Assembly: GCA_026708325.1 (NCBI GenBank)
Contig: JAPOVC010000006.1
Span: 124,001 to 188,000 of the forward strand
DNA length: 64,000 bases
Direction: 5' to 3'
Source: Anaerolineaceae bacterium
Lineage (GTDB): Bacteria; Chloroflexota; Anaerolineae; Aggregatilineales; Phototrophicaceae
Shown here in pieces: positions 1-56,802 of the stretch. Positions within the stretch are counted from its first letter, which is position 1; the number at the start of each line of letters is the position of its first letter. The translations under genes were made by a program, and so were the position numbers. The notes beneath the pieces were generated by a model. The model did not search any database and had not been told where the DNA came from. It saw nothing but the letters and a program-made list of their open reading frames with translations.

Positions 1-848
1 TGCTGCAGGGCCTGCAGGCTCGCCACCTGGCCCATGGTGGGAGCCGCCATCGTGAGGTACTGGTGCAGGCGGCCCATGGCGGCCAGCAGGTCCGGCGGGC
101 CGCAGGCATAACCGATGCGCCAGCCCGTCATCGCGAAGGACTTGCTCATGCCGCTGAGCAACACCGTGCGCTCGCGCATGCCGGGCAGCGACGCAAAGCA
201 ACGGTGCCGGTGACCAAAGACCAGCCGTTCGTAGATTTCGTCCGAGATGACGACCAGATCATGGGCCTGGGCCACAGCCGCCACCTGCATCAGATGTTCG
301 TCCGTCAGCACGGCCCCGGTCGGGTTATTGGGATAGTTGATGACAATGGCGCGCGTGCGCGGGGTTATACGCCTTTCCAGCGCCGCTGCAGTGACCTGGA
401 AATCCTGGGCGACCTCGGTGCTGACCGGCACGCAAACGCCGCCGGCAATGCTTACCGCCGCCGGGTTGCTGACGAAACAGGGCTCAACCACCAGCACCTC
501 GTCGCCAGGGTTGAGCAAGGCCCGCAGGGCAAGGAACAACCCCTCGCTGACGCCAACGGTGACCAGAATCTCCTCATCGGGGTCGTAGGTCAGGCCGTAC
601 AACTCATCAACGTAGTCACTGATGGCGTGGCGCAGTTCGGGCATGCCGGCGTTGGCGGTGTAACCGGTGCCGCCTTGCAGCAGGCTGTCGGCGCCAGCGC
701 GTGCGACGTGGGCCGGCGTGGGAAAGTCCGGTTCACCGATTCCGAGGGATATGACGTCCTCCATATCCGCCGCAATATCAAAGAAGCGGCGGATGCCCGA
801 AGGCGGCAGGCTGCGGACGTCTTCAGCGATCCGGTTTGGCATGGCCAT
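1..848 (-). CDS. Class I/II PLP-dependent aminotransferase (5' part, runs off the window)
   Basis: The minus-strand frame opens just after an in-frame TAA and starts at ATG 848 or the nearby ATG 842; no strong ribosome binding site separates them. The translation has the fold type I aminotransferase landmarks in order: SLGIGEPDFPTP near residue 35, a GYTANAGMPELR substrate-loop region, INYPNNPTGAVL, ISDEIYERLVF and the PLP-lysine motif SKSFAMTGWRIGY. The catalytic lysine is therefore intact. The order and spacing match aspartate/aromatic aminotransferases of the AspC/PatA type, which move an amino group between an amino acid and a 2-oxoacid in the cytoplasm. The C-terminal third lies beyond base 1. 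The substrate cannot be told from sequence. Confidence 0.93.
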   Translation of the reverse strand, partial: MAMPNRIAEDVRSLPPSGIRRFFDIAADMEDVISLGIGEPDFPTPAHVARAGADSLLQGGTGYTANAGMPELRHAISDYVDELYGLTYDPDEEILVTVGVSEGLFLALRALLNPGDEVLVVEPCFVSNPAAVSIAGGVCVPVSTEVAQDFQVTAAALERRITPRTRAIVINYPNNPTGAVLTDEHLMQVAAVAQAHDLVVISDEIYERLVFGHRHRCFASLPGMRERTVLLSGMSKSFAMTGWRIGYACGPPDLLAAMGRLHQYLTMAAPTMGQVASLQALQ

Positions 849-27135: not shown

Positions 27136-28168
27136 GGTGCAGTTCCCCATCCCCGACGGGCTCTTCCGCCTCGCTGTGCAGAAAGCAACGCACGTAGTGG
27201 TCCGGCGCAAGTTCGACCAGGGCGGGTTGGGCGCGTTCGCAGCGGTCTTCGATCAGATCGTCGCAGCGCGAGCAAAAACCGCAGGCGCGGGGCGGGTCGA
27301 TGGGTACCGGTACGTTGCCGCGAATGGCGTCCAGGCGCGAACCGATACTCTTGCCGAGGCGCGGGATGGAGTGCAGCAGGCGACGCGTATAGGGGTGCAG
27401 GGGATTGCGGAACAGTTCGACGGTTGGCGCGCGCTCGACGATGCGGCCGAGGTACATCACGTTGACCAGATCGGCGATCTCGGCGATGACGCCCAGGTCG
27501 TGCGTGATGTACATGATGGCCATGCCGTATTGCTCCTGCAACGACGCCAGCAGGTCCAGTATCTGGGCCTGCACGGTGACGTCGAGCGCCGTGGTTGGCT
27601 CGTCGGCGATGAGCAGGGTGGGGTTGCAGGAAAGCGCCATGGCGATCATGGCCCGCTGGCGCATGCCGCCGCTCAGCTGGTGCGGGTATTCGTCGACGCG
27701 CTGCAGGGGGTTGTTGATGCCGACCTGTTCCAGCATGGTCAGCGCGATCTCGCGGGCCTCCCGTTTGTCGGACGTGCGGTGCAGGCGGATGGCCTCAATG
27801 ATCTGCGCGCCGACGCTGTGCACCGGCGAGAAGCTGGTCATCGGTTCCTGGAAGACCATCGAGATTTCGCTGCCACGGATATCGCGGATGGCCGCGCTGC
27901 GCGAGTCCAGGGCGGCGAGATCGACCTGCGCGCCATTGCGCCGGCGAAAGTGCATTTGTCCGTCTGTAATCTGGCCGGGCGGCGGCACGATCTGCAGGAT
28001 GGACTGGGCCGTGACGCTCTTGCCCGAGCCGGATTCGCCGATGATGCCCACGGTCTGGTGCGCGTCAATGCTGAAGTCCACGCCATCGACGGCCTTGAGC
28101 GTGCCCTCGTCGACCTGAAACCAGGTCCGCAGGCCGCGCACGTCCAGTACCCTGTCCCTTGCGTTCAT
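27128..28168 (-). CDS. oppD: Opp/Dpp-type ABC transporter ATP-binding subunit (OppD-like), 346 aa
   Basis: ATG 28168 overlaps the stop of the GH117-like gene by four bases. Walker A is GESGSGKS, the Q-loop is [11 protein letters not shown], the signature is [10 protein letters not shown] and Walker B is [12 protein letters not shown], with the H-loop YITHDLGV. The C-terminal cysteine-rich extension ([15 protein letters not shown]) is typical of OppD/DppD. It forms the ATPase heterodimer with the OppF encoded next. The position directly behind a GH117-like hydrolase, translationally coupled to it, ties transport to sugar processing. Confidence 0.95.
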
Positions 28169-29394
28169 GGGCCCAGGATCGTACATCCGTCGGTTTCTGC
28201 CTGCTCCTCGAGGATACGCGCCTTTCCTTCGGGAGAAAGGGCCAGCACCCGCTGGGTCCAGGTGTCCTCGTTGTATCGGAGGTTGCTGCTCTGGAATTCC
28301 GGCCGCTCCGCATCGCTGAGGTTGCAGTCAAAACGAACGATGTAGCAGCCGTTGTCGGGGCCGCCTCCCTCCGGGTTGATGTGGGCCAGCCCCCAGCGAA
28401 CGCCCTGTCCGTCGCCGTTGTCGGCGAAGGCATCCGGGCAATAGGGGCCCGGCGCCTGGGGCGGTGTGGTCACGAGGGCCTTTGGCACGAAATTCAGCCC
28501 GTCCTCCGCGTACTGGACCGTGTTTTTCTCCGGCCCGTCAAGACTCAGCAGGGTCGCGATACCGCCGCGCCAGGGCCAGAGCATGGTCTCGTGGCCGGAA
28601 TTGGTGACCGGGTTGAGCGGGGACTTGACGAAGGGGCCCGCCGGATGGTCCGCGATGGCGACGCCCTGGGCGATGCGCAGGTTTTCCGGCGGCCTGTCCA
28701 CCGGCGTGCCCTTGTAGTAAAGCCAGACCTGCCCCTTGTAGACCAGGGGGTAGGGGTCATGAATGGCGCAGCCGTCCCATTCGTCCGGGCCACCGCGCAT
28801 CACCACCGGACGGTCCACGCGCGTCCAGGGGCCCCAGGGCGAGTCCGACCAGGCGGCGCTGACGCTGACGCAATCGTGCGCGCGCCAGCGCCTGGTGAAG
28901 CACTGGTAATAGAGCCAGAACTTGCCTTTCCAGGCGAGCACGTCGGGCGTGGAGAGCGAACGATCGCCATAGCTGCCCTGGGGCGCGCGCGGCACGGCGA
29001 CGCCCTCTTCCTGCCAGTCAAAGCCATTGGAAGAGGTCGCGTGGCAGATGTCGGCGAGGTCCCAGTCCACCGCCGGGGTCTCCTCGTCGGCCTCCGCATG
29101 GCGGTCCATGCCCAGGGGCGGCACATTGGTCACGCGGCGCGTATACCAGACGTGGTAGCGGTCGCCGATTTTCAGCACCTTGGAGGGATCGCGGCGGGAT
29201 ACGGAGACCCTGTCGTCGCGGCCAATGCCCGTGACCGGGGAGTAGCGAAAGGTCGTGTAAAAGGGGTTCGTCCGGTCCTGGGTCGTATTCCACAGGTCGT
29301 AGAAGCGCGCTGTAGCGGCGCTGATCGGCCGGTCGGCCGGTTTGGCCCTGGCAAGGCGCGCAGGGAAGCTTCCGGTGGTCTGGGTTTCGTCCAT
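28165..29394 (-). CDS. GH117-like five-bladed beta-propeller hydrolase, 409 aa
   Basis: ATG 29394 has a GGGAG site upstream and fits the paralogs. Repeated blades show the family wording: [70 protein letters not shown] and [15 protein letters not shown]. In family GH117 (alpha-1,3-(3,6-anhydro)-L-galactosidases), as I recall, the key residues are two aspartates and a His-Glu pair. The matching residues here are Asp69, Asp213 and His268-Glu269, with similar spacing. There is no signal peptide, so it should act in the cytoplasm on imported oligosaccharides. Specificity within the propeller-hydrolase group (GH117, GH43-like) is not proved. Confidence 0.75.
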
Positions 29395-29506: not shown

Positions 29507-31087
29507 ATGAGTTGGGACTACCTCATCGTGGGCGCGGGGTCGGCGGGCTGTGTGCTGGCGGACCGGCTGAGCGCGGATGGCGAAAGCACTGTGCTTCTGC
29601 TGGAGGCCGGCGGGCCGGATACAGCGCCCGACATCCACGTGCCGGCGCGCTTTACGGACCTCTTTCACACGGAGATTGACTGGGCGTACGAGACGCTGCC
29701 GCAGCCCGGCCTGAACGGGCGTCGGGAATACGTCCCGCGCGGCAAGGTCTACGGCGGCACCAGCTCGATCAACGCCATGGTCTACGCCCGCGGCCATCCC
29801 TCCGACTACGATCGCTGGGCAGAAGCGGGCAATGCCGGCTGGCGCTACGAGGAATTGCTGCCGCTCTTTCGCGACATGCAATGCCAGGGGCGGGGGGCAT
29901 CCGAACACCATGGCGTGGACGGCCCGCTGCACGTCTCCGACCCGCGCGACCCCAACCCCCTGAGTCTGGCTTTTGTCGAGGCGGCCGGGCAGATCGGCCA
30001 ACCCCTGCGCGACGATTTCAACGCCGGCGTGCAGGAGGGCTTCGGCGTCTACCAGACGACCACCAGAGACGGACGGCGCTGGAGCGCCGCCGACGCCTTT
30101 CTGCGCCCGGCCCTGGCGCGCGCCAACCTTGAGGCCTCCCCCTGGTCGCTGGTGACGGAACTGCTCTTTGAAGGCCGGCGCTGCGTCGGTCTACGCTTTG
30201 AGCGAGACGGCGAGACCCGTGAAGCCTTCGCGCGACGCGAGGTCATCCTCTGCGGCGGCGCCATCAACTCGCCGCAATTGCTGCTGCTCTCCGGGATCGG
30301 GCCGCCGGAGCAGTTGAAAGCCTGCGGCATTCCGTTGCGTCATGCCTTGCCCGGCGTCGGCCGCAACCTGATGGACCACGTTCAGGTGCCGGTCGCCTGG
30401 CACTGTCGCGAGCCGGTCTCGCTGGTGGCGAAGGAAGACCCGGAACAACTGGAGCTGTATCAGAGGGAGCGGCGCGGTCTGCTGAGTTCCAACCTGGGCG
30501 AGGCGGGCGGCTTTGTGCGCCTCGATCCCGCGTCGCCAGCGCCGGAATTGCAGTACCACTTCGGCCCTGGCTGGTTCATCCGTCACGGCTTTGGCGACCC
30601 GCCCGGGCATGGCTTCACGGCGTTGACGGGCCTGGTCGCCACGCAGAGCATCGGCGCGCTGAAACTGGACCCGGAATGTCCGCAGGGTCCGCCGCTGATC
30701 GACCTGGCCTGCCTGACCGACGAACGCGACCTGCAGGTGTTGCTGGCGGGCGTGCGTCTGGCGCGGAAGATCGTGGCGGCGCCCGCCTTCGATCGCTATC
30801 GCGGCGAGGAGTTTCTGCCAGGCGAGGAGGTAGAGGACGACGCAGGTTTGCGTCTATTCCTGCGGGATTTCGCGACCACCATTTATCACCCGGTGGGCAG
30901 TTGCAAAATGAGTCAGGACGTTCTGGCGGTGGTCGACGAGCGCCTGCGCGTGCGCGGATTGCAAGGACTGCGGGTGGCCGATGCCTCGATCATGCCGCGC
31001 ATTATCAATGCCAACACCAACGCCCCCTGCATGATGATCGGGGCGAAGGCGGCCGCGATGATCCGGCAGGAAGGGGGCGGGCCATGA
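29507..31087 (+). CDS. GMC-family FAD oxidoreductase (choline/alcohol dehydrogenase-like), 526 aa
   Basis: The N terminus has the FAD-binding Rossmann motif GAGSAG (9-14) and the GMC signature PRGKVYGGTSSINAMVYARG. The second GMC signature GGAINSPQLLLLSGIGP lies near residue 250. The C-terminal part has the catalytic pair: His461 in YHPVGSCKM and an Asn in NANTNAPCMMIG. The enzyme should oxidise an alcohol or sugar hydroxyl, with FAD as cofactor. No signal peptide is present. Its stop overlaps the ATG of the double GH117-like protein, so the two are produced together, which suggests oxidation of the sugar released by the hydrolase. Confidence 0.95.
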   Translation: MSWDYLIVGAGSAGCVLADRLSADGESTVLLLEAGGPDTAPDIHVPARFTDLFHTEIDWAYETLPQPGLNGRREYVPRGKVYGGTSSINAMVYARGHPSDYDRWAEAGNAGWRYEELLPLFRDMQCQGRGASEHHGVDGPLHVSDPRDPNPLSLAFVEAAGQIGQPLRDDFNAGVQEGFGVYQTTTRDGRRWSAADAFLRPALARANLEASPWSLVTELLFEGRRCVGLRFERDGETREAFARREVILCGGAINSPQLLLLSGIGPPEQLKACGIPLRHALPGVGRNLMDHVQVPVAWHCREPVSLVAKEDPEQLELYQRERRGLLSSNLGEAGGFVRLDPASPAPELQYHFGPGWFIRHGFGDPPGHGFTALTGLVATQSIGALKLDPECPQGPPLIDLACLTDERDLQVLLAGVRLARKIVAAPAFDRYRGEEFLPGEEVEDDAGLRLFLRDFATTIYHPVGSCKMSQDVLAVVDERLRVRGLQGLRVADASIMPRIINANTNAPCMMIGAKAAAMIRQEGGGP

Positions 31088-33393
31088 GCGTGGTTGAGAG
31101 CGCTGCGACGTGGCGGCTGCGTGAACAGTGGCAGGGTGGAGAGAGCGAGCTGGCAACGGCTTTCCGCTACAGCGAGGTCACGGGCATTGGCGAGGAGCCG
31201 GGCGTCACGCGGCGCGACCCGAGCACCGTGCTGAAGATCGGCGAGCGATACTACGTGTGGTACACGAGACGGCAGACCCAGGCGCGCAAACGGCAGATGC
31301 CGCCAGAAGAGCAGACCTGGGACGTCCCGGCCTTCGACTGGGACCTGGCCGAGATCTGGTACGCGACCTCTGCGGATGGCTTCCACTGGGAAGAACAAGG
31401 CGTGGCCGCGCGCCGCGGCCCGCGCGACGCGCACGACGGTCGTTCGATTTTCACGCCCGACGTGCTCTACGCGGAAGGGCGCTACTGGCTTTACTACCAG
31501 GCCGTCGGCCACCCTTACGGCATCCGCACGCGCAACACGGTGTGCATGTCCTGGTCCGACTCGCCGGACGGCCCCTGGCAGCGCTGGCCGGAACCGCTGC
31601 TGCGGCCGGGCCAGCCAGGCGAATGGCTGGGCGAGGCCGACGACAATGAGGTGCTGCGCTACGGCGCCTGGGACAGCCACAAGGTGCACGACCCCTTTGT
31701 GTTTCGCCGCGAGGGCCGCTACTGGCTCTATTACAAGGGGCAGCCGGTGGGCTGGGGCACGCGCCATGACCGCGGCATCGGCCTCGGTGTGGCCATCGCT
31801 GACCGCCCACAAGGTCCCTTCGTGAAATCGCCGCTGAACCCGGTCACCAACAGCGGCCACGAGACCTGCCTCTTCCCCTGGGGGGATGGCGTCGCTGCAA
31901 TCTGCGGCCACGACGGGCCGGAGAAGGACAGCGTGCAGTTCGCGCCCGACGGGCTCAACTTCGAGCTGATGTCCTACGCGCTGCTGCCGCCGCCCGCGCC
32001 TGGCCCCTTCGTTCCCGACGCCTTCAACGACACGCGGGACGGGGCGGGCATCACCTGGGGGCTGGCGCACATCGCCACGGAAGAGACGAAAGGCGAAAAC
32101 TCGTGGATCATTCGTTTCGACTGTGACCTGCGCCGCGGCACGCAGCGGCCCGGCTTCCGCCCGACGCACCAGGCGCTGCCCGCCAGCGTCTGGCTGTCGC
32201 CGGACCTGGTCATTAACGAGGCCAACAGCCGGCAACGACGCTGGCACCCGCAGACGCCGGGTCCTCCGGCGCATCCCCCTGCGGAACGGCGCAGCGCCGC
32301 CACCCGACGCGTCTACGCGCGCTACGGCGTCGGCAAGGACCAGATGAGCGAGTACTTTTCGGCCTTTCGTTACGCCCTGGTCCCTGGCCTGGAGCCGCAG
32401 CCAGGCGTTTCCCGCAGCGACCCCTCTAAGGTCATCCGCGTCGACGGTCGGCACCTGGTGTGGTACGCGCGCTGCAGCAGTGACGACAAGCGGCAGCGGA
32501 TTTGGTACGCCAGTTCGGCTGACGGCATTCACTGGCAGGAACAGGGACCGGCGCAGTTGACGGGGCCCGATAGCAGCGCAGGAGACACATTGGCCTCCGC
32601 GCCGGACATCATTGTGCAGGGCGGCGCGTTCTGGCTCTATTACCAGACCGGCCCTGGCGCGGCGACGCCGGACGCGCCCCAGGCGATCGGCGTGGCGCGG
32701 GCGGAATCGCCGGATGGCCCGTGGCAGCGCATGGAGGCTCCGGCGCTGCAGCCGGCCGCGTCCGGCGCCTGGGATGCGGGCCGTCTGCAGGATCCGACGG
32801 TCCTGTTCTGGCGCGGTCAGGTCTGGCTTTTCTATCGCGGCGAGCGGGGCGGCGCGGCCGGCAGCGGCGGTTGGGGCGTGGCGCGGGCGGACGACCCCCG
32901 CGGTCCCTTTCACAGGTCGGCGCTCAATCCGGTCAGCAACAGCGGGCGGGCGCCCTTCCTTTACCCCTGGCGCGATGGCCTGGTGGCCATAACGGGGCAG
33001 GCCGGACCGGAAGCCAACTGCGTTCAGTTCGCGCCGGACGGACTGAATTACGAAATCGTCGGCCGCGTCAGCGCGCCGCCGGTCAGCGCCGGCCCGCAAT
33101 TGGACGAAGCCTGGTCCGATGCCGCCATGCCGGCCGCGGGCGGAAGGGGCGTGGCGCGGGGCCTTTGCCACTGCAGCCAGGGCGAGGACGGCCCGCTGCA
33201 ATACAGTCACCTTTTGCGCTTCGAATGCAACCTGCGCATGGGGGAGGACCGGCAGGACTTCTATCGCAGCTGGAACTACCGCTTTCCGCCCTCGGCCTAC
33301 TTCTCGCGGGACTTCCGCCTCGGCGACGCGCGGCGCGCGGAAGCACTGGCGCTGATGCGCGCCATCGATGAGGAGACGACAGGGCCGGATTGA
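31084..33393 (+). CDS. Double-domain GH117-like propeller protein, 769 aa
   Basis: ATG 31084 overlaps the GMC stop (ATGA). Residues 1-375 form one complete GH117-like propeller with all key positions: Asp45 (TRRDPS), Asp203 (VHDPFVF) and His259-Glu260 (NSGHET). After a Pro/Arg-rich linker (about 380-410), a second propeller spans about 420-769: Asp446 (SRSDPSKV), Asp570 (LQDPTVLF), but NSGRAP at 619-624, so Arg622-Ala623 replace His-Glu. The first domain looks catalytically competent, while the second has lost the presumed acid/base pair and may bind substrate or have changed activity. There is no signal peptide. It converges on the regulator gene with only 3 bases between. Confidence 0.75.
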   Translation: MSVVESAATWRLREQWQGGESELATAFRYSEVTGIGEEPGVTRRDPSTVLKIGERYYVWYTRRQTQARKRQMPPEEQTWDVPAFDWDLAEIWYATSADGFHWEEQGVAARRGPRDAHDGRSIFTPDVLYAEGRYWLYYQAVGHPYGIRTRNTVCMSWSDSPDGPWQRWPEPLLRPGQPGEWLGEADDNEVLRYGAWDSHKVHDPFVFRREGRYWLYYKGQPVGWGTRHDRGIGLGVAIADRPQGPFVKSPLNPVTNSGHETCLFPWGDGVAAICGHDGPEKDSVQFAPDGLNFELMSYALLPPPAPGPFVPDAFNDTRDGAGITWGLAHIATEETKGENSWIIRFDCDLRRGTQRPGFRPTHQALPASVWLSPDLVINEANSRQRRWHPQTPGPPAHPPAERRSAATRRVYARYGVGKDQMSEYFSAFRYALVPGLEPQPGVSRSDPSKVIRVDGRHLVWYARCSSDDKRQRIWYASSADGIHWQEQGPAQLTGPDSSAGDTLASAPDIIVQGGAFWLYYQTGPGAATPDAPQAIGVARAESPDGPWQRMEAPALQPAASGAWDAGRLQDPTVLFWRGQVWLFYRGERGGAAGSGGWGVARADDPRGPFHRSALNPVSNSGRAPFLYPWRDGLVAITGQAGPEANCVQFAPDGLNYEIVGRVSAPPVSAGPQLDEAWSDAAMPAAGGRGVARGLCHCSQGEDGPLQYSHLLRFECNLRMGEDRQDFYRSWNYRFPPSAYFSRDFRLGDARRAEALALMRAIDEETTGPD

Positions 33394-45929: not shown

Positions 45930-46131
45930 GATCGGCGCTCCTTCCTGAAGGCCGCAGCGCGGCTCGCCTGTCCTGTTTGCTGCGGGCCGGGGAGCTGTGA
46001 ATTCGCAGCGACGGTCCATTGTAACGCCTGGCGCCGACGGCGTCCCTTTGGCGGCATCATCGGCATTGTTCGGTAAACTGTGGGTCACCCTGTTGCTGGC
46101 TGCAACAGTTGCGCGATCAGGAGTTGATGAC

Positions 46132-47217
46132 ATGTCGCCATTGAGCGCCGCCATGGCGCGCTTCGCAGGGCCGGACATCCACAGCCCCTGGCACACCAAC
46201 TTTCGCTACAGTCCGATCAGCGGCCTGGCGTATGACTCCGGCGTCACCCGACGCGATCCGAGTTGCATCCTGCTGGTGGACGGGCGCTATTATGTCTGGT
46301 ACACGCGCCACGCGGGGCCGGCCGCGGTGGGGCACGAACGCGCCACGGAGGTGTTGCCGGCCATGCCCTGGGACCTGGCGGAGGTCTGGTACGCGACTTC
46401 TGCAGACGGCCATAACTGGCAGGAGCGGGGACCGGCGATTCGGCGCGGCCCCAAAGGGGCGTACGACGAGCGCAGCATTTTTACGCCCGACGTCATGGCG
46501 CACGAGGGGCGTTTCTATCTGGTCTACCAGGTCAGTCCGGCGCCCACCTGGCGTTGCACCCCGGAGTCGATCGCCATCGCCTGGTCCGACAGCCCGGATG
46601 GCCCCTGGACGAAGAGCGATGCGCCGGTCGTCGAGCCGGACGACTCGGGAGAGGTTGACGAACGCGCCAACCCGGAGGAAGCGAGTGTGCAGGGCGCCTG
46701 GGACAGCCTGCGCGTGCATGACCCGGCCCTGCTCTACCGCGACGGGCAGTACTGGCTTTATTACAAGGGCGAGGGCATCGGCTACAGCAACCAGGAATCA
46801 AAGTGGGGCGTGGCCATTGCCGACGATCCCCTGGGCCCCTACCGCAAGTCCGCGCTGAACCCGGTCACCAACAGTGGCCATGAGGTGATGGTCTGGCCCT
46901 GGCAGGGCGGGGTGGCGGGTCTGTTGACGCGTTGCGGGCCGGAACGCGACACCATCCAGTACGCGGCGGACGGCCTCAACTTCGAGCCGCGGGCCAGCAT
47001 CAGCCGCCCGCCCGAGGCCGCGGGCGCCCTGCGCATCCCGCCGGAGCAGAACGATCATCCCCTGGCCGGGCTGGCCTGGGGATTGTGTCACGTCACGCAA
47101 TGGAGCCTGCACGGCGTACGGCAGGGCAATGACAATCTGGGGCTGGCGCAGATCAACGCGCCGCGCGACTTTCTGCTGCGCTGGGAAAGCGACCGCAGAC
47201 GCTCGGCTTTCGTCTAG
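46132..47217 (+). CDS. GH117-like propeller hydrolase, third gene, 361 aa
   Basis: ATG 46132 follows AGGAG by 8 bases. The same blade wording is present: TNFRYSPISGLAYDSGVT, RRDPSCILLVDGRYYVWYTR, YATSADGHNWQERG, RSIFTPDVMAHEGRFYLVYQ, LRVHDPALL and NSGHEVMVWPW. The presumed catalytic positions are Asp42, Asp197 and His250-Glu251, all present. It lacks a signal peptide. The gene opens a plus-strand run with the VCBS protein, the TIM-barrel protein and a sulfatase, spaced or overlapped tightly, which looks like one operon. It is the closest match in the window to canonical GH117 length. Confidence 0.77.
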   Translation: MSPLSAAMARFAGPDIHSPWHTNFRYSPISGLAYDSGVTRRDPSCILLVDGRYYVWYTRHAGPAAVGHERATEVLPAMPWDLAEVWYATSADGHNWQERGPAIRRGPKGAYDERSIFTPDVMAHEGRFYLVYQVSPAPTWRCTPESIAIAWSDSPDGPWTKSDAPVVEPDDSGEVDERANPEEASVQGAWDSLRVHDPALLYRDGQYWLYYKGEGIGYSNQESKWGVAIADDPLGPYRKSALNPVTNSGHEVMVWPWQGGVAGLLTRCGPERDTIQYAADGLNFEPRASISRPPEAAGALRIPPEQNDHPLAGLAWGLCHVTQWSLHGVRQGNDNLGLAQINAPRDFLLRWESDRRRSAFV

Positions 47218-47245
47218 AGAAGAGGACCGGCAAGGGGGCACGAAA

Positions 47246-50224
47246 ATGAAACGGGCAATTTTGTTGCTGACATTGATCCTGACATTGACGAACGCAGTCC
47301 CGGCCCAGGAAGCGTCCCTGCCGCCGTTCAGCGACGTGACCGTCGCCGCCGGCGTCGGCCTGGCGCATGCCGGAACGGCGCCGGGCATGCCGCTGGGCAA
47401 CGGCGTCGCCTGGGGCGATTTTGATCGCGACGGCTGGCCCGACCTCTTCGTCAGCAACCAGGGCGGCCCCAACGCGCTCTACCGCAACCTTGGTGACGGC
47501 AGCTTCGTCGACGTCGCTGCGGAGGCGGGCGTCAGCGCGACGGAGGACTTCGGCAGCGGCGCGGTCTTCGGCGACTATGACAACGACGGCTGGCCCGACC
47601 TCTTCGTGGCCAACATCGGCGCCAACCGGCTCTTCCGCAACCTCGGCGACGGACGCTTCGAGGACGTGACCACCGCCGCCGGTCTCGGCGACGAAGGCTA
47701 CAGCCAGTCCGGCGCCTGGGGCGACTACGACAACGACGGCTGGCTCGATCTGTACATCAGCAACCATATTGCGCCGGACGGCAGCGCCGATCGCCTGTGG
47801 CACAACCTGGGCGATGGCCGTTTTGAGGACGCCTCCGACCTCTTGCCCTGGCGCCTGCGCTCCGGCGCGGCCTTTGTGGCCAGCTTTGTAGACTACGATG
47901 ACGATGGCGACCAGGACCTCTACGTCATCAACGACAAGTGGTTTGGCGAGACCACCAGCAACGTGCTGTGGCGCAACGAGGGGCCTGGCCCGGCGAATTC
48001 GGCGGAGCGGCACGACTGGCTGTTTCGCGACGTTTCGACCCACAGCGGCACGAGTTACACGGTCAACGGCATGGGTCTGGCTGTAGGCGACGTCGACAAC
48101 GACCTCGATCAGGACTTCCTCTTCACCAACATCGGCGCCAACGTCTTGCTGAGCAACAGCGGCGACGGACGTTTCCGCGACTTCACACAGGTGGCCGGTG
48201 TGGCGCGCGCCAGCCTGCCGGATGGCAGCGAGGCCCTGACATGGTGCGCGCTGTTCCTTGACTTTGACCACGACACCTGGCTGGACAGCTTCCTTTGCGG
48301 CAGCCCGCTGGACAGCGGTGACGGCCAGCCCGATGCGCTCTACCACAACCGCGGCGACGGCCGCTTTGCGGACATCGCGGTTGAGACCGGCATGGACGCG
48401 GCGCAGTGGACCCGCTCCGGCGCCTGGGCGGACTACGACCGCGACGGCGACCTGGACCTGTACCTCGCCAGTTACGGCCAGAGCGGGCAGCTGTGGCGCA
48501 ACAACGTCCGGGACAGCAACTGGCTGACGCTGGAGCTGCGCGGCGTGGTCAGCAACCGTGACGGCATCGGCGCGAAGATTCGACTCGACGCAGGGGGCGT
48601 CACCCAGTTGCGCGAGATGCGCAGCGGGGAGAGCCTGGGCGCGGGCAACCAGTTGCTGGCGCACTTCGGCCTGGGTGGCGCCGACAGCGCGGAACGCATC
48701 GAAATCGCCTGGCCCTCCGGCATTGTCCAGACCCTGGCCGACGTGGGGGCGCGTCAGCACCTGGTCGTGGAAGAGGCCGCCGTTTACGGCCACGCACGTG
48801 ATCTGCGCCTGCGCCTGTCGGACGGGCACCTGGACCGGATTGCCTGCGGTCAGCCCTGGGATCTCGGGATCGACGTTCTCAACATGGGCAGTGAAGCGCA
48901 GCGCGATCTGCAACTTCAGGTCATGGTCAGCGGGAGCGACGGGCTGGAGCTGTCCCACACGATCAATCTGGCCGACCCCACCGGCAGCGCGCTCTTGCCG
49001 GCCGGGGAATCGCTGCACCACGTATGGGAGGGAGCGTTTGTGCCCGGGGCCGGAATCGATTACGCGCTTGAAGTGGAAGCGCTGCTCCCTGGAGATGACT
49101 GGCCAACGAACAACGTCGTTCACATCACCCTGGCGGGCGCGGCCCTGATAGCGCCGCAGGTGCCGCTGATGCCGGCCGAATACGAACCCGGAGCGGCGGC
49201 CGTCGCCGGCGACTTCAACGGCGACGGTCTCCATGACATTTACCTGGTCAACCACGGGCAGACCAATGCCCTGTTGCTGAACCAGGGCGACGGCGGCTTC
49301 GTCGCGGCCGGTGAAGCGGCGGGCGTCGATCACGGTGGCTTTGGCGTGGCGGGGGTCGCGGCGGACCTGGACGGCGACGCGGACCTGGACCTTTACCTGC
49401 TCAACGCGCAACAGAAGGACGTCCTCTATCGCAATCGCGGCGATGGAGTTTTTGAAGTCGCTGAAGACGCGGGCGTGGGTCAGGAGGCGCTGGGCAGCGA
49501 AGCGGCGGTCGCCGCCGACTTCGACGGCGATGGCGACCTGGACCTCTATGTGGTGCACCAGCGTCAGCCCAACGAACTCTGGCTGAACGACGGGTTGGCC
49601 CGATTCACCCTGGTCGACGCGGAGATCGCCGGACGCGGCATAGGAAGGGCCGTTGCCGCCCTCGACGTAGAGTCGGACGGCGACCCTGATCTCTACCTGG
49701 TCAACGACGGCCAGCCCGACCAGCTCTTCATCAATCAGGGCGGAGCCGTTTTTCTGGAAGCCGACCTGAGCGGGAGCGCGGCGGGTCGCAGCCCCGGCCG
49801 CGGCCTCGCCAGCGCCGACTTCGACGGCGACGGACTGCCTGACCTGTTCATCGCCAGAGAGGGACGAGCCGGCGCGCTCTACCTGAACGGTGGCGATGGC
49901 AGCTTCAAAGAGGCGGAGGCGGGCATGATAGCCGCCAGCGGCAGCGAGGTGGTGGCGCGCGACTTTGACGATGACGGCGCAATTGACCTTTTCGTGACCG
50001 GTAGCCAGTCCAGTCAATTGTGGCTCAACCGGGGCGACGCCAGTTTTCATCTGGTCAGCGCCTGCGCCGGCCTTGACCTGGCCGGAAGCGCCGTGGCCGC
50101 CACAGCGGCCGACCTCGCTGGCGACGGCATGCCGGAGCTTTACCTGGTGAAGGCCGGTCTCCCCGATCTCCTGCTCGTCAATCATTACGGCAAGGGGCCC
50201 GCCTGCCACGAGGATGGCGCATGA
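47246..50224 (+). CDS. Secreted VCBS/FG-GAP repeat protein with UnbV/ASPIC domain, 992 aa
   Basis: ATG 47246 starts a signal peptide (KRAILLLTLILTLTNAVPA). Residues about 30-415 are FG-GAP/VCBS repeats with calcium-binding loops such as DFDRDGWPDL, DYDNDGWPDL and DVDNDLDQDF, probably one beta-propeller. Residues about 418-512 form an ASPIC/UnbV domain (GIGAKIRLDAGGVTQLREMR, then SGESLGAGNQ, IEIAWPSGIVQTL), as in CRTAC1-like proteins. About 515-640 looks like a CARDB-type beta domain. A second FG-GAP series (DFNGDGLHDIYLV, DFDGDGDLDLYVV) fills the rest. It should be exported and bind carbohydrate or protein. Its stop overlaps the next ATG, tying an extracellular binding protein to the hydrolase genes. 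Confidence 0.85.
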   Translation: MKRAILLLTLILTLTNAVPAQEASLPPFSDVTVAAGVGLAHAGTAPGMPLGNGVAWGDFDRDGWPDLFVSNQGGPNALYRNLGDGSFVDVAAEAGVSATEDFGSGAVFGDYDNDGWPDLFVANIGANRLFRNLGDGRFEDVTTAAGLGDEGYSQSGAWGDYDNDGWLDLYISNHIAPDGSADRLWHNLGDGRFEDASDLLPWRLRSGAAFVASFVDYDDDGDQDLYVINDKWFGETTSNVLWRNEGPGPANSAERHDWLFRDVSTHSGTSYTVNGMGLAVGDVDNDLDQDFLFTNIGANVLLSNSGDGRFRDFTQVAGVARASLPDGSEALTWCALFLDFDHDTWLDSFLCGSPLDSGDGQPDALYHNRGDGRFADIAVETGMDAAQWTRSGAWADYDRDGDLDLYLASYGQSGQLWRNNVRDSNWLTLELRGVVSNRDGIGAKIRLDAGGVTQLREMRSGESLGAGNQLLAHFGLGGADSAERIEIAWPSGIVQTLADVGARQHLVVEEAAVYGHARDLRLRLSDGHLDRIACGQPWDLGIDVLNMGSEAQRDLQLQVMVSGSDGLELSHTINLADPTGSALLPAGESLHHVWEGAFVPGAGIDYALEVEALLPGDDWPTNNVVHITLAGAALIAPQVPLMPAEYEPGAAAVAGDFNGDGLHDIYLVNHGQTNALLLNQGDGGFVAAGEAAGVDHGGFGVAGVAADLDGDADLDLYLLNAQQKDVLYRNRGDGVFEVAEDAGVGQEALGSEAAVAADFDGDGDLDLYVVHQRQPNELWLNDGLARFTLVDAEIAGRGIGRAVAALDVESDGDPDLYLVNDGQPDQLFINQGGAVFLEADLSGSAAGRSPGRGLASADFDGDGLPDLFIAREGRAGALYLNGGDGSFKEAEAGMIAASGSEVVARDFDDDGAIDLFVTGSQSSQLWLNRGDASFHLVSACAGLDLAGSAVAATAADLAGDGMPELYLVKAGLPDLLLVNHYGKGPACHEDGA

Positions 50225-52011
50225 CCCTCAGGCGTTCGGACGTGGTCATCACCCGACCCTGCAGCATGGAGGACTATCGCCGCTACCGCGCCACGGCGCT
50301 CGCCTGGGGTTTCCTGCCGGAACCGGACCGGCGCGGTCTGTCGCCGGACGGCGAGATGATGCGCGACGTGGACGAGGCCCATCGCTGCGGCGCGAAATTT
50401 CAGGGCCGGGTCGAGCTGGATGCCGACTGGATCGGCATGATCGACTATGACCCGGACTACATGGACTCGGTCGTGCGAGACATCGAAGGCCGGCCGCAAT
50501 ACACCTGGTGGACGCATCGCTATCGCGGCAATCCCTCCTGGCATTTCTGCACCAACGCGCCGGGCTACCGGCGCTACCTCTTCCACCAGCTGGACCGGGT
50601 GATGAAGGCCGGCACGGACTGGTTGATGATCGATTCGGCCATCCCCACCATCGGCGCGCTGACCGCGCGCTACGGCGGCTGCTTCTGCAGGCACTGCATG
50701 GCGGGCTTTCGTGACTGGCTGGCGCAGAATACAACGCCGGAGCAACTGGCGGCCGAAGACGTGGAGGACATCTGCCGCTTCGACTGGGGCGAGTGGTTGC
50801 GCGAGCGCGGCGTCGATGACTCTCGTTATCGCGAGAACATCCAGGCTTTCCCGCCGACCATCCCGCTGGCCGGGCGCTATTTCGACTATCAGTGGGGAGA
50901 GGTCGACGCCCTTTTCCGCGAATTCAAACGACGGGCGCAGGAATACCGCGACGACTATGTGCCGATGAGCTCGAATTCGCCCTGGTACTGGCCGCAATTC
51001 CCCTACGCCGTCGAGGCCCACGATTTCTACACCAACGAACTGGAATACCACCCGCCGGAACGCGAGGTCTTTCCGACCTCGCCGATCTACGTCCTGAAAC
51101 TGGCCGAGGCGCTGGGGCGGATCGTCGGCCTGACCGGCATACCGCGCGCCTTTGAGCCCTACCGCCTCAGGCCGCGGCCGGGGCACATTCGCCTGTGGAT
51201 GGCGCAGGCCGCGGCCCTGGGCCACGTCTTCATGGTGCCGGCGAAGATGTGGACCCTGCGCGTCCCCGGCGAGGCCGACCGCTGGTACTACAGCGACCCC
51301 GGCGACTACGAAGAGATTTGCCACTTCATCCGCGACCATGCCGGTCTGCTGGATGAATACGAGTCCCTGGCCAGCGTGGCGCTGGTCTTCAGCAACCTGG
51401 CCGTGCGGCGTTTCGTGGGTGAGACGCGCGTCGGGCGTCTGGGCGGGCAGGAGCGCAGCGCGCCGGACACGCCCCTGCATCGGGCCACGCTGGCCCTGAC
51501 TCACGCCAACATTCCCGCGCGTTTGCTCGTCGCCGGCGACGGCATGCTGCCGGACCAGTTGGCGACGGCGGACCTTGACGCCTTTCAGGCGGTCGTGCGC
51601 TTCGAGCCCTCGCCACTGACGGAGGAACAGGAGACTCGTCTGCAGCGGGCCAGTGACCGGTTGCACACCTTCAGATCGACGGAGGCGCTGCTGGCGACGC
51701 TGGAACGGCCGCTGACCCTTGAAGGGGCGGCGGGCATTGTGGCCGTGCCGCGCCATCAGCCGCAGGACCCGGGTGCCCCGGCCATCGTACATTTGTTGAA
51801 CACAAACTACGACGCCGAAGGGGATGCCTACCACGAGCAGCGAGAGTTCACCCTGGTCCTGAAACACTGGCTCTACGGACGCGAATTCAGCGGCGCGCGT
51901 TTGCACGCGCCCGGCGAGCCCGCGCAGGCGCTGGACTGCGTCAATGACGATGATGAGACCCGCGTACGTGTATCGCGGCTCGACATGTGGGCCATCCTTG
52001 AACTTGAATGA
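50221..52011 (+). CDS. Putative glycoside-hydrolase-like TIM-barrel protein, 596 aa
   Basis: ATG 50221 overlaps the preceding stop (ATGA). The N-terminal 400 residues alternate strands and helices in a TIM-barrel-like way, with ADWIGMIDYDPDYMD, DWLMIDSAIPTIGALTARYG and a CFCRHCMAGFRDWL motif resembling the cysteine cluster in uncharacterised GH42/GH-A-like families. SSNSPWYWPQ and EAHDFYTNELEY could be later barrel strands bearing acidic residues. The C-terminal part resembles the glutaminase-amidotransferase-like and beta domains that follow such barrels (HLLNTNYDAEGDAY). No signal peptide is present. The function is uncertain; glycoside hydrolysis is inferred from fold and neighbours. Confidence 0.6.
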   Translation: MTLRRSDVVITRPCSMEDYRRYRATALAWGFLPEPDRRGLSPDGEMMRDVDEAHRCGAKFQGRVELDADWIGMIDYDPDYMDSVVRDIEGRPQYTWWTHRYRGNPSWHFCTNAPGYRRYLFHQLDRVMKAGTDWLMIDSAIPTIGALTARYGGCFCRHCMAGFRDWLAQNTTPEQLAAEDVEDICRFDWGEWLRERGVDDSRYRENIQAFPPTIPLAGRYFDYQWGEVDALFREFKRRAQEYRDDYVPMSSNSPWYWPQFPYAVEAHDFYTNELEYHPPEREVFPTSPIYVLKLAEALGRIVGLTGIPRAFEPYRLRPRPGHIRLWMAQAAALGHVFMVPAKMWTLRVPGEADRWYYSDPGDYEEICHFIRDHAGLLDEYESLASVALVFSNLAVRRFVGETRVGRLGGQERSAPDTPLHRATLALTHANIPARLLVAGDGMLPDQLATADLDAFQAVVRFEPSPLTEEQETRLQRASDRLHTFRSTEALLATLERPLTLEGAAGIVAVPRHQPQDPGAPAIVHLLNTNYDAEGDAYHEQREFTLVLKHWLYGREFSGARLHAPGEPAQALDCVNDDDETRVRVSRLDMWAILELE

Positions 52012-52027
52012 CGGAACGGGAGGCACC

Positions 52028-53812
52028 GTGAAGGACATCCAAGGTCCCAACATCGTGCTGGTGATGACCGACGATCAGGGTTACGGCGACCTGGGTTGCA
52101 CCGGCAACCCGGTCCTGCGCACGCCGCATCTCGACGCCTTTCACGACGAGAGCCTGCGTCTGCGCGACTACCACGTCGGGCCGACCTGCGCGCCGACGCG
52201 GGCCGGTCTGCTGACCGGGCGTTACGCCAACAGCACCGGCGTCTGGCACACCATCGGCGGCCGCTCGCTGCTGCGCCAGGACGAGCGCACGCTGGCGGAC
52301 TGCCTGCGGGAGGCGGGTTGGCGCACGGGCATCTTCGGCAAGTGGCACCTGGGCGACGTCTCGCCCTACACGCCGCTGGAGCGCGGCTTCGACGAGGCCA
52401 TCGTGCACGGCGCCGGCGGCATCAGCCAGACCAACGACCACTGGGGCAACGACTACTTCGACGACGTCTACCGCGACAATGGGGAGATGCGACAGTTTGA
52501 GGGTTACTGCACCGACGTCTGGTTCCGCGAGGGCCTGGCCTTCATCGAACGCAACCGCGAGCGTCCCTTCTTTTGCATGATTACGCCCAACGCGCCGCAC
52601 AGCCCCTGGAACGTGGAGACGCGCTACAGCGAGCCCTACCGCGGGCAGGTGTCCGAAGAGCGCGCCCGCTTCTACGGCATGATCGCCAACATCGACGAAA
52701 ACTTTGGCGGGCTGCGCGCGCGTCTGGCGGAGCTTGGGCTGGAAGACGACACCCTGCTGATCTTCTCGACCGACAACGGCAGCGCCGGCGGCGTCAGCGT
52801 GGATGAGGACGGTCACCTGGTCGACGGCTACAACGCGGGCATGCGCGGCATGAAGGTCTGGCAGTACGAAGGCGGCCACCGCGTGCCCTTCTTCCTGCGC
52901 TGGCCGGCCGGCGGCATGGGCGGTGGTCGCGATATCGACCAGCCCGGTTCGCACATCGACATCAAGCCGACCCTGCTGGACCTCTGCGGCGTGGTCGACG
53001 AGGCCGGCCCGCGGGTGCACGGCCGCAGTCTGCGACCGCTGCTGGAGGGCGACGGGGCCGACTGGCCGGAGCGCAGCATCGTCACCGACACGCAGCGTCT
53101 GGTGCAACCGCGCAAGTGGCGCAAGAGCGCGGTGATGCGGGGCTCCTGGCGCCTGATCGACGGCCGCGAACTCTACGACCTGGCGAGCGATCCCGGTCAG
53201 CGCGAGGACGTCGCCGGGCAGCATCCGGGGCGCGTGGAGCAGATGCGCGCGGACTACGAGGCGTGGTGGGAGCTGGTCAGCGAGCAGTTTGATCGCGACA
53301 TCCCGATGGCCATCGGCGGGCCGGCTGCGCAACAGACCCTGCTCACCGGACACGACTGGCGCAACGAGGACGTCACCTGCATCGTCTCCCAGGGGGACGT
53401 ACGTCAGGGTCGCGACGCCGAAGGCCATTTCGAAGTGGAGATTCTGCAGGGCGGGCGCTACGAGTTCGAATTGCGGCGCTGGCCGCCGGAGACGCAGCAC
53501 GCCATCGATGCCGGCATCAAGGGCGACGATGTGGCCTGGGAGCGCGAGTGGGTCGATGAGCGTTTCAACTATTGGTACACGGGCGGTGTCGCCCTGCCGT
53601 TGACGCGGGCGACCTTACGCATCGACTACGCGGACGAACATCCGCCTCTGGACCTGGCGGGCGAGGTCGAGCCCGGCAGTCAGGGCGTGTGCTTCACAGC
53701 CGACTTGCAGCCGGGCGCGGCCCATCTGCGCGCGCGCCTGCTGGACGACGAGGGTCACGCCCGCGGCGCGTACTACGTGCAGGTGCGGCTGCTGGAGGCC
53801 GGGTTGGCCTGA
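52028..53812 (+). CDS. Sulfatase (arylsulfatase family S1), 594 aa
   Basis: GTG 52028 has GGGAGG five bases upstream. The formylglycine motif is C54-A-P-T-R in GPTCAPTRAGLLTGR, modified after translation to the catalytic aldehyde. Metal ligands are visible: MTDDQGYGD at the N terminus and FSTDNGSAGG near residue 250. KWHLGD and APHSPW are further active-site stretches. Residues about 430-594 form an extra beta-rich C-terminal domain found in some carbohydrate sulfatases. No signal peptide is seen, so it would desulfate imported fragments in the cytoplasm unless exported by another route. It closes the plus-strand operon starting at 46,132. Confidence 0.94.
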   Translation: MKDIQGPNIVLVMTDDQGYGDLGCTGNPVLRTPHLDAFHDESLRLRDYHVGPTCAPTRAGLLTGRYANSTGVWHTIGGRSLLRQDERTLADCLREAGWRTGIFGKWHLGDVSPYTPLERGFDEAIVHGAGGISQTNDHWGNDYFDDVYRDNGEMRQFEGYCTDVWFREGLAFIERNRERPFFCMITPNAPHSPWNVETRYSEPYRGQVSEERARFYGMIANIDENFGGLRARLAELGLEDDTLLIFSTDNGSAGGVSVDEDGHLVDGYNAGMRGMKVWQYEGGHRVPFFLRWPAGGMGGGRDIDQPGSHIDIKPTLLDLCGVVDEAGPRVHGRSLRPLLEGDGADWPERSIVTDTQRLVQPRKWRKSAVMRGSWRLIDGRELYDLASDPGQREDVAGQHPGRVEQMRADYEAWWELVSEQFDRDIPMAIGGPAAQQTLLTGHDWRNEDVTCIVSQGDVRQGRDAEGHFEVEILQGGRYEFELRRWPPETQHAIDAGIKGDDVAWEREWVDERFNYWYTGGVALPLTRATLRIDYADEHPPLDLAGEVEPGSQGVCFTADLQPGAAHLRARLLDDEGHARGAYYVQVRLLEAGLA

Positions 53813-53852
53813 GGGGCGAAGGCCCTGTCACGCCTGTTGGAAATCTGCAATT

Positions 53853-55187
53853 TCAGCCTTCGCTGACCAGCGGATCGCCGGCTGCGCGCTGCCAGATGCG
53901 CAGGCGGGCGCGCATGCGCTCCATGACGTGCTGGTAGCCGCGCATTTCCGAGAGGTCATTCATCTCCAGCGGGTCGGCCTGCAGGTCGAAAAGTTGGGTG
54001 TGCGCCGCGCCGCTGACCCGCGACTCAATCAGTTTGAAGCGCTCGCCGCGCAGGCTGCGCATGTGGGGTAGCGCGCCCGGGTGCCCCTGGTCGGGCTGCC
54101 AGGCGGCGAAGAGCGAGCGGCGATGCCGCGTCCCCTGACCCGCGAGAAGGGCGTTCAGACTGAAGCCTTCGTTGGTCTCCGGCAGGGCGCAGCCGGCGCG
54201 TTCCAGCAGGGTGGGGAAGAGATCGTGCAGGTAACAAAGCGCGTCTGAGCGCTGGCCGGCGACGATGCCCGGTCCGCGCAGAATGAGCGGGACGCGAAGG
54301 CTGTGTTCGTAGACGTTCTGCTTGCCCATCAGGCCGTGCTGGCCGAGCGAGAGGCCGTGGTCGGCGCAGTAGATGACGATGGTGTTGTCGGCCAGGCCCT
54401 GGCGCTCCAGCGTCTCCAGGATGCGCCCGATTTCGGCGTCCATGTGCGTGATCATGCCGTAGTAGTCGGCGATGTGCTGACGGATTTCGGCCTCGTCGCG
54501 CGGCTGTACGGCCAGCACTTCGTCGCGGATATCGCTGATGCCGAGGTCGAAAGGGTGTTGCGCCATGAAATTGTCCTGCAGTTCGATGTCATCAGCCTGG
54601 TAGCGGGTCGCGTAGTCGCCGGGCGGCGTACGCGGGTCATGCGGCGAAGTGAAGGACACCCAGGCGAAGAAGGGCTCGTCGTCGGGACCGCGTGACTGCA
54701 GGAAGTCGATGGCCTCGTCGGCGAAAAGCGTGGTGGAAAAGGTATCGTGGACTTCCAGGCGGCTTTCGTCCTGGGTGCGCACGGCGGCCCAGGGATAGAC
54801 CGGCACGGCGTACTGGTCGGACATGCCGCCGAGGAAGACCACCCCGCCAGTACTGAAGCAGCGGGCGTAGCTTTCGCTGTGGTTGTGCCACTTGCCGATA
54901 CCGCAGGTCTCGTAGCCCTCCTGCCACAGCAGCTCGGGCAGCAGGGGCGCGTCGGATGGCAGCGGATCGGGCGTGCGGAAGAGGCCGCGTCCGCTGAGCA
55001 GCATGCCGCGACTGGGCAAACAGACGGCGCCGGAGGTGGCGCCCATGATGCCGGCACGGGTGAAGGCCGTGCCCTGCGCCATCAGGCCGTCGAGGGTCGG
55101 CGTTTCCACCGGCTCCAGGCCCAGCGCGCCGATGGCGGAATGGCGGTGGTCGTCGGCGATGAGCAGCAGGAAATTGGGTCGGGTCAT
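53853..55187 (-). CDS. Sulfatase (family S1), 444 aa
   Basis: ATG 55187 follows the stop of the neighbouring sulfatase by a single base; an in-frame ATG four codons earlier would overlap it. The formylglycine motif is C56-L-P-S-R (AVCLPSRGMLLSGR). Metal-binding segments are LLIADDHRHSA and YCADHGLSLGQHG; GIGKWHN is the active-site lysine region. The C terminus has LFDLQADPLEMNDLS, typical of the family. No signal peptide. It is co-transcribed with the next sulfatase and converges with the plus-strand one. The sulfate ester substrate is unknown. Confidence 0.94.
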   Translation of the reverse strand: MTRPNFLLLIADDHRHSAIGALGLEPVETPTLDGLMAQGTAFTRAGIMGATSGAVCLPSRGMLLSGRGLFRTPDPLPSDAPLLPELLWQEGYETCGIGKWHNHSESYARCFSTGGVVFLGGMSDQYAVPVYPWAAVRTQDESRLEVHDTFSTTLFADEAIDFLQSRGPDDEPFFAWVSFTSPHDPRTPPGDYATRYQADDIELQDNFMAQHPFDLGISDIRDEVLAVQPRDEAEIRQHIADYYGMITHMDAEIGRILETLERQGLADNTIVIYCADHGLSLGQHGLMGKQNVYEHSLRVPLILRGPGIVAGQRSDALCYLHDLFPTLLERAGCALPETNEGFSLNALLAGQGTRHRRSLFAAWQPDQGHPGALPHMRSLRGERFKLIESRVSGAAHTQLFDLQADPLEMNDLSEMRGYQHVMERMRARLRIWQRAAGDPLVSEG

Positions 55188-55188
55188 G

Positions 55189-56607: not shown

Positions 56608-56686
56608 GCGCGCTCCCTGTTTGCGGCAGCCAGGCGACGAGTATAGCGTGAAGGCGGAGGATCCTGTGGGCGGGCCCTCACCCCAA

Positions 56687-56709
56687 CCCCTCTCCTTCAG
56701 GGAGAGGGG
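56687..56709. repeat. Dispersed hairpin repeat, 9-bp stem
   Basis: CCCCTCTCC and GGAGAGGGG flank a 5-base loop, preceded by CCTCACCCCAA. This wording is a common interspersed repeat in many bacterial genomes. It sits in the 195-base gap between the SDR 3' end and the sulfatase start; the rest of that gap shows nothing I recognise. It may serve as a transcription terminator for the upstream minus-strand SDR only if read on the other strand, so its role is unclear. Confidence 0.6.
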
Positions 56710-56802
56710 CTTGCCAACTTGTTCCAATGAGCAAATAGTGAGTCCTGCTTCACTGGTTGGGTGTTCACCCTTACAAAGACGATTTTCCCAGATGAGGACC
56801 CT

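What the first reader, a model, noticed from the sequence alone, without database searches (positions are those of the whole stretch)
31084..33393. Fused double GH117-like protein whose second domain lost the His-Glu pair
The first domain has NSGHET with both presumed catalytic residues; the second reads NSGRAP, with Arg-Ala in their place, while its two aspartate positions remain. An active plus pseudo-active propeller in one chain is an unusual arrangement. In GH117, dimers swap N-terminal segments, so the fusion could be a covalent dimer with one regulatory half.
Basis: partly seen in the sequence, partly recalled or inferred. Interest (0 to 1): 0.65.

Follow-up and report, generated by a model that had tools for sequence, protein, structure and literature searches.

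The report
Fused twin GH117 with dead half
This gene makes one protein from two joined copies of a red-algal-sugar-cutting enzyme; the joined form is normal in related Chloroflexota with both copies apparently working, but here the second copy has lost its cutting residues and most likely survives as a built-in structural partner for the first.

Summary
Window 31084-33393 (+) encodes a 769-aa protein with two GH117 (3,6-anhydro-alpha-L-galactosidase) five-bladed propellers. Half 1 keeps every GH117 catalytic position. Half 2 keeps three acidic positions, but has Arg622-Ala623 where His302-Glu303 belong, Ala640 where the acid-dyad partner Asp320 belongs, and shortened active-site loops. (1) The fusion is not peculiar to this genome: 30 of 34 genomes of one other genus of the same family carry the orthologous fused gene, and all 30 have His-Glu in both halves. 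(2) Of 154 distinct GH117-like domains checked, only this one has lost both residues by substitution. The tree puts half 2 inside the second-half clade on a branch about three times longer than those of half 1 and the two single-copy GH117s of the locus. Best explanation: an ancestral covalent GH117 dimer in which half 2 became a pseudoenzyme kept to complete and stabilise half 1 (both SxAxxR dimerisation motifs remain). Structural completion is inferred; a regulatory role is untested. New variant of a known kind, of moderate interest.

The parts
31084..33393 (+). Tandem GH117 protein, 769 aa, the subject of the finding
31099..31116 (+). First SxAxxR motif (S6-R11), half-1 N-terminal arm, shortened relative to relatives
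   Evidence: S6 and R11 invariant in 30 tandems; truncation visible; motif role from PMC13118177
31165..32118 (+). Half-1 propeller (res 28-345), predicted catalytic
31216..31218 (+). D45 = Asp90 (general base)
   Evidence: alignment to 4ak5, role from PMC11574756
31459..31461 (+). D126 = position of Glu167 (Asp in most of the set)
31690..31692 (+). D203 = Asp245
31858..31863 (+). H259-E260 = His302-Glu303 (general acid and pKa modulator)
   Evidence: roles from PMC11574756
31912..31914 (+). D277 = Asp320 (dyad partner of the catalytic His)
32119..32253 (+). Half-1 C-terminal arm (res 346-390), diverged (7 of 19 conserved columns changed)
32254..32292 (+). Linker (res 391-403)
32293..32310 (+). 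Second SxAxxR motif (S404-R409), start of the half-2 N-terminal arm (res 404-427; 1 of 13 conserved columns changed)
32365..33219 (+). Half-2 propeller (res 428-712), predicted catalytically dead; 62 of 159 conserved columns changed, loops deleted
32419..32421 (+). D446 = Asp90 position, retained
32605..32607 (+). D508 = Glu167 position, retained as Asp
32791..32793 (+). D570 = Asp245, retained (preceding His is Gln569)
32947..32952 (+). R622-A623 in place of His302-Glu303
33001..33003 (+). A640 in place of Asp320 (Glu in second halves of the sister genus)
33220..33390 (+). Half-2 C-terminal arm (res 713-769), W730/N731/R733/P735 invariant in all tandems; expected to reach the half-1 pocket
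29507..31087 (+). GMC oxidoreductase directly upstream, 4-bp overlap, same order in the sister genus
28165..29388 (-). Single GH117 (P0002), canonical NSGHET, same order in the sister genus
45997..47217 (+). Third GH117 (P0003), canonical NSGHEV; start is probably an internal ATG

Best explanation
The protein is a GH117 dimer written as one chain. The fusion is old: it is shared, in the same gene order and with both halves canonical, by another genus of the family. In the window's lineage the second half lost the general acid (His302 to Arg), its dyad partner (Asp320, Glu in sister second halves, to Ala), the pKa-modulating Glu303 (to Ala) and several pocket loops. Half 2 therefore cannot use the known GH117 mechanism. 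Half 1 keeps the full catalytic set and should still be an exo-acting 3,6-anhydro-L-galactosidase or close variant, working in the cytosol on imported galactan oligosaccharides. Half 2 is kept as a propeller that donates its N- and C-terminal arms to half 1, stabilising it and completing the +1 side of its pocket as the partner chain does in homodimeric GH117. Shown: sequence, homology, orthology, residue losses, accelerated half 2, retained reading frame and both SxAxxR motifs. Inferred: half 1 active, half 2 inactive, arm donation, substrate.
For: GH117 identity of both halves (Zg3615 Z 43.0). Catalytic columns with roles from PMC11574756. Orthologous fused gene complete in 30 of 34 sister-genus genomes, all HE/HE. 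Same P0002-GMC-tandem gene order. Tree: half 2 within the sister-genus half-2 clade (100/99), end branch 1.1 against 0.39 (half 1), 0.35 (P0002), 0.31 (P0003). Conserved columns changed: propeller 62/159 in half 2 against 25/206 in half 1 (Fisher p 3e-9); half-2 arms 7/39 against half-1 arms 15/35 (p 0.024, post hoc). Third-position GC 0.83 in half 2 and 0.86 in half 1: still an ordinary coding frame. PMC5849685: partner H392 completes the +1 subsite. AlphaFold pTM 0.81 for this protein and 0.87 for a sister tandem.
Against: Only one genome carries the degenerate half, so the change could be recent decay on the way to loss: the tandem was found in neither of the two other genomes of the genus (G001 has no GH117 match; in G002, 85% complete, the GMC and tandem genes are absent next to the P0002 orthologue). 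The arm-conservation test is small, post hoc and partly reflects a shortened N-terminus. No activity data exist.
Confidence: 0.62

Rival explanations
1. Half 2 is simply decaying: selection on it has been relaxed because half 1 (or the other GH117s) suffices, and it has no present role beyond being attached.
For: Long branch and skewed residue make-up of half 2, large loop deletions, one genome only, tandem not found in the two other genomes of the genus.
Against: Frame is open over the whole half with normal codon-position GC; 97 of 159 highly conserved propeller columns and 32 of 39 conserved arm columns are kept; the fold is still confidently GH117.
Confidence: 0.2
2. Half 2 has become a regulatory or carbohydrate-binding domain: it binds a sugar through its retained acidic residues without cutting and tunes or targets half 1.
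For: D446, D508 and D570 remain; pseudoenzymes often regulate active paralogues (general knowledge; review PMC10211241 listed).
Against: Positions next to the acids are lost as well (R445S, R502T, T506A, H569Q and three shortened loops), which argues against a kept binding site for the same sugar. No direct evidence for regulation.
Confidence: 0.12
3. Half 2 has a new catalytic activity built on Arg622 and the remaining aspartates (neofunctionalisation).
For: Three acidic positions remain; long branch; wider pocket expected from loop losses.
Against: No new conserved constellation can be recognised from one sequence; the general acid and its partner are gone.
Confidence: 0.04
4. Assembly or sequencing error in the genome that holds the window.
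For: Only one assembly holds the sequence; no independent copy could be checked.
Against: Changes are spread over 285 residues, in frame, with normal codon-position composition and in-frame loop deletions; the gene lies inside a long contig.
Confidence: 0.02

Closest known systems
GH117 3,6-anhydro-alpha-L-galactosidases (PpGH117/BpGH117 4AK5-4AK7, BuGH117B 5TA7, Zg3615 4U6D, Zg3597 4U6B, SdNABH 3R4Y)
   Same: Same fold and family; half 1 has the full catalytic set; SxAxxR dimerisation motif; dimer needed for the +1 subsite in the known enzymes.
   Different: Known ones are single-domain homodimers; here two domains are fused and the second lacks the general acid, its dyad partner and the Glu.
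Fused tandem GH117 proteins of sister-genus Chloroflexota (L004-L011, L031-L063, L065, L067-L070, L075, L118-L127), found here
   Same: Orthologous gene in the same locus (P0002-GMC-tandem), same length class and domain order.
   Different: All have His-Glu in both halves; the window protein alone has Arg-Ala in half 2, shorter loops and a truncated N-terminal arm.
Anaerolineales UBA3499/UBA3001 tandem GH117 (L064, L066)
   Same: Two fused GH117 domains, both canonical.
   Different: Insert between the halves; second half not in the same clade as the sister-genus second halves, so possibly a separate fusion.
GH43-like propeller plus GH117 fusions of Bacteroidota (L087, L088, L091, L093, L096, L099)
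   Same: About 770 aa, two propellers in one chain, one canonical GH117.
   Different: The N-terminal half is a distant GH43-like propeller with its own conserved residues, not a GH117 copy.

Membership tests
GH117 | Significant sequence similarity to solved GH117 enzymes over the propeller | tested here: met
   Half 1 E about 1e-84 to 5ta7/4ak5; half 2 E 4e-51 to 4u6d
GH117 | Five-bladed propeller fold of the GH117 type | tested here: met
   Predicted model best matches Zg3615 (Z 43.0, 2.6 A, 360 residues, over half 1), other GH117 Z 37-40, GH43/GH62 about 20-24; model pLDDT 78
GH117 | Catalytic Asp90, Asp245, His302, Glu303 and Asp320 in half 1 | tested here: met
   D45, D203, H259, E260, D277
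GH117 | Catalytic His302-Glu303 and Asp320 in half 2 | tested here: not met
   R622, A623, A640; half 2 is homologous to GH117 but not expected to be a GH117 enzyme
GH117 | SxAxxR motif in the N-terminal dimerisation segment | tested here: met
   S6-R11 and S404-R409; motif from PMC13118177
GH117 | Hydrolysis of the alpha-1,3 bond of neoagarobiose with inversion | not testable with these tools
   Needs an enzyme assay
Fused GH117 tandem (covalent dimer) | Two GH117 halves in one chain, conserved as such among relatives | tested here: met
   30 of 34 sister-genus genomes
Fused GH117 tandem (covalent dimer) | Halves pack as the crystallographic dimer with exchanged arms | tested here: inconclusive
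Glycoside-hydrolase pseudoenzyme | Loss of catalytic residues with fold retained | tested here: met
   for residues; for fold; inactivity itself not tested

The most novel reading that the evidence does not exclude
A natural covalent GH117 heterodimer in which one protomer has been relieved of catalysis and is kept only to complete the +1 subsite and stability of the other: a natural separation of the catalytic and partner roles of an obligate glycosidase dimer.
Probability: 0.4. Interest if true: 0.6.

Novelty: new variant of a known kind. Interest (0 to 1): 0.47.

Why it matters
GH117 dimers complete each other's active sites, so one cannot normally separate 'being a catalyst' from 'being a partner'. 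A conserved fused version with both halves canonical, and one relative whose second half is catalytically dead, offers a natural test of what the partner protomer must supply. It also adds a lineage of Chloroflexota with a red-algal-type galactan locus (three GH117 genes, at least three sulfatases, an enolase-superfamily enzyme, aldo-keto reductases and an oligopeptide-type ABC transporter). No paper describing fused or degenerate GH117 was found in the library searched; that library lacks most subscription papers.

Tried and rejected
Frameshift or pseudogene reading: rejected, since the frame is open, third-position GC is normal throughout, and neither other frame of the linker restores a relative-like sequence. 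Horizontal acquisition of an unrelated second half: rejected, since half 2 falls inside the sister-genus second-half clade. Viral origin: a viral-contig scan confirmed no relative. Finding a second degenerate case: searches of 98 family, 154 order, 396 class and 400 phylum genomes, plus a genome-contig scan, gave none in the loci read. Pfam and NCBIfam gave no GH117 model that names the protein; only GH43/GH32-type propeller models match. The key structural paper on Zg3597/Zg3615 (Ficko-Blean 2015) is not held in the library.

Full report
OBSERVATION. The gene at 31084-33393 (+) is an intact ORF of 769 aa whose ATG overlaps the stop of the GMC-oxidoreductase gene before it. Against solved structures, half 1 matches GH117 enzymes at E about 1e-84 (5ta7, 4ak5) and half 2 at 4e-51 (4u6d). 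NSGHET is at residues 256-261 of half 1 and NSGRAP at 619-624 of half 2. In PpGH117 the His and Glu of this motif are H302 and E303 (the chain index in the PDB sequence is offset by two, read from the alignment).

CATALYTIC RESIDUES. PMC11574756 gives Asp90 as general base, His302 as general acid sharing a proton with Asp320, and Glu303 as pKa modulator; single mutations of Glu303, Asp90, Asp245, Glu167 or His302 inactivate the enzyme, and the His, Asp and Glu are conserved in the family with two exceptions. Half 1 has D45, D126, D203, H259, E260, D277: complete (Asp at the Glu167 position is the usual state in the sequences gathered here). Half 2 has D446, D508, D570 but R622, A623, A640.

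THE FUSION IS CONSERVED. Of 34 genomes of one other genus in the same family, 30 hold a complete fused tandem (826-908 aa open frames) and one more is split over contig ends; I read all 30 and every one has NSGHET in both halves. A scan of named genomes gave the same picture: MAGs labelled Chloroflexi or Anaerolineae, plus tandem proteins in Anaerolineales UBA3499/UBA3001. Gene order around it is also conserved: single GH117 on one strand, then GMC oxidoreductase and tandem on the other, with the GntR regulator, permease, enolase-family and binding-protein genes nearby. No other genus of the order, and no other genome of the class or phylum samples, gave a fused match in the genome search. Of the two other genomes of the window's own genus, G001 has no match and G002 has the P0002 orthologue (85%) next to the enolase-family gene, without the GMC and tandem genes between them.

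HALF 2 HAS CHANGED FAST AND WHERE IT MATTERS. In the maximum-likelihood tree half 1 groups with first halves and half 2 with sister-genus second halves (100/99). End branches: half 2 1.1, half 1 0.39, P0002 0.35, P0003 0.31; the tree tool warns that the exact place of such a long row is unsure and that half 2 has an odd letter make-up. Best-hit identity agrees: half 2 is 51-54% identical to sister second halves and 43-45% to sister first halves. Against columns conserved in at least 95% of 40 other tandems, the propeller of half 2 has 62 of 159 changed and that of half 1 25 of 206 (Fisher p 3e-9). Changes include R445S beside the base, R502T/T506A in the RSxFTPD motif, H569Q beside D570, H622R, E623A, E640A and three shortened loops. 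Yet codon-position GC of half 2 is that of an ordinary gene (0.70/0.57/0.83; half 1 0.68/0.53/0.86), so it is still read as protein.

WHY KEEP IT. [quoted passage not shown] The SxAxxR motif in the N-terminal segment mediates dimerisation (PMC13118177). Both copies of the motif are kept here (S6-R11, S404-R409). If the fusion is a covalent dimer, the arms that half 2 gives to half 1 should be kept and the arms that half 1 gives to half 2 should be free to drift. Conserved arm columns changed are 7 of 39 for half 2 and 15 of 35 for half 1 (p 0.024). This is in the predicted direction, but it is a small post-hoc test: half of the effect comes from the shortened N-terminus, and the C-arm contrast alone (7/19 against 6/26) is not significant. 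AlphaFold models of this protein (pLDDT 78.1, pTM 0.81) and of a sister tandem (84.4, 0.87) give two propellers with a defined mutual arrangement. Structural matches to single GH117 chains such as 3r4y run from half 1 to the half-2 tail (model ranges 3..746 and 23..807), which hints that the half-2 tail lies on half 1, but without coordinates this remains a hint.

FUNCTION. Half 1 should be an exo-acting 3,6-anhydro-L-galactosidase or a close variant. No signal peptide is apparent at the start of the protein (by eye), and the locus has an oligopeptide-type ABC transporter, sulfatases, an enolase-superfamily enzyme nearest to talarate/galactarate dehydratase, aldo-keto reductases and a GntR regulator, which fits import of sulfated galactan oligosaccharides and cytosolic cleavage. 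The substrate is inferred.

VERDICT. Observation right; covalent-dimer idea plausible and indirectly supported; 'regulatory' unsupported; 'unusual arrangement' true only of the dead half. Simple decay remains the main rival because only one genome shows the state.

Noticed in passing
L087:12589-14898, L088:8849-11167, L091:11393-13702, L093:8852-11155, L096:8843-11182, L099:5986-8289: Bacteroidota proteins of about 770 aa in which a distant GH43-like propeller with its own conserved residues (WDGDCTHNP, MMTSTPT, DDHxEW) is fused in front of a canonical GH117 domain: a second kind of propeller-GH117 fusion.
   Followed up: partly
Second halves of sister-genus tandems (e.g. L058:9974-12472) and P0003-like GH117s (window 45997-47217): The dyad partner of the catalytic His (Asp320 in PpGH117) is Glu in second halves of tandems and apparently Cys in P0003-like enzymes (D 94, E 34, C 13 of 154 domains), so the His/Asp dyad is not uniform in GH117-like proteins.
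   Followed up: partly
L114-L117: P0003-like GH117 genes occur as adjacent unfused pairs in the sister genus, both with NSGHEV.
   Followed up: partly
window 47129-56727: At least three sulfatase-family genes (51944-53812 +, 53853-55199 -, 55189-56727 -) lie downstream of the third GH117, with a 1031-aa FG-GAP/ASPIC-UnbV protein at 47129-50224, suggesting a sulfated-galactan locus.
   Followed up: partly
G120:C37:338-1516 and G130:C162:5620-6531: Two sister-genus GH117 matches are reported with one in-frame TAG inside the matched stretch.
   Followed up: no
L101 (G002:C11:18000-29484): In a congeneric genome the P0002 orthologue (85%) is directly beside the enolase-family gene (92%), with the GMC, tandem, GntR and permease genes missing between them.
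   Followed up: partly
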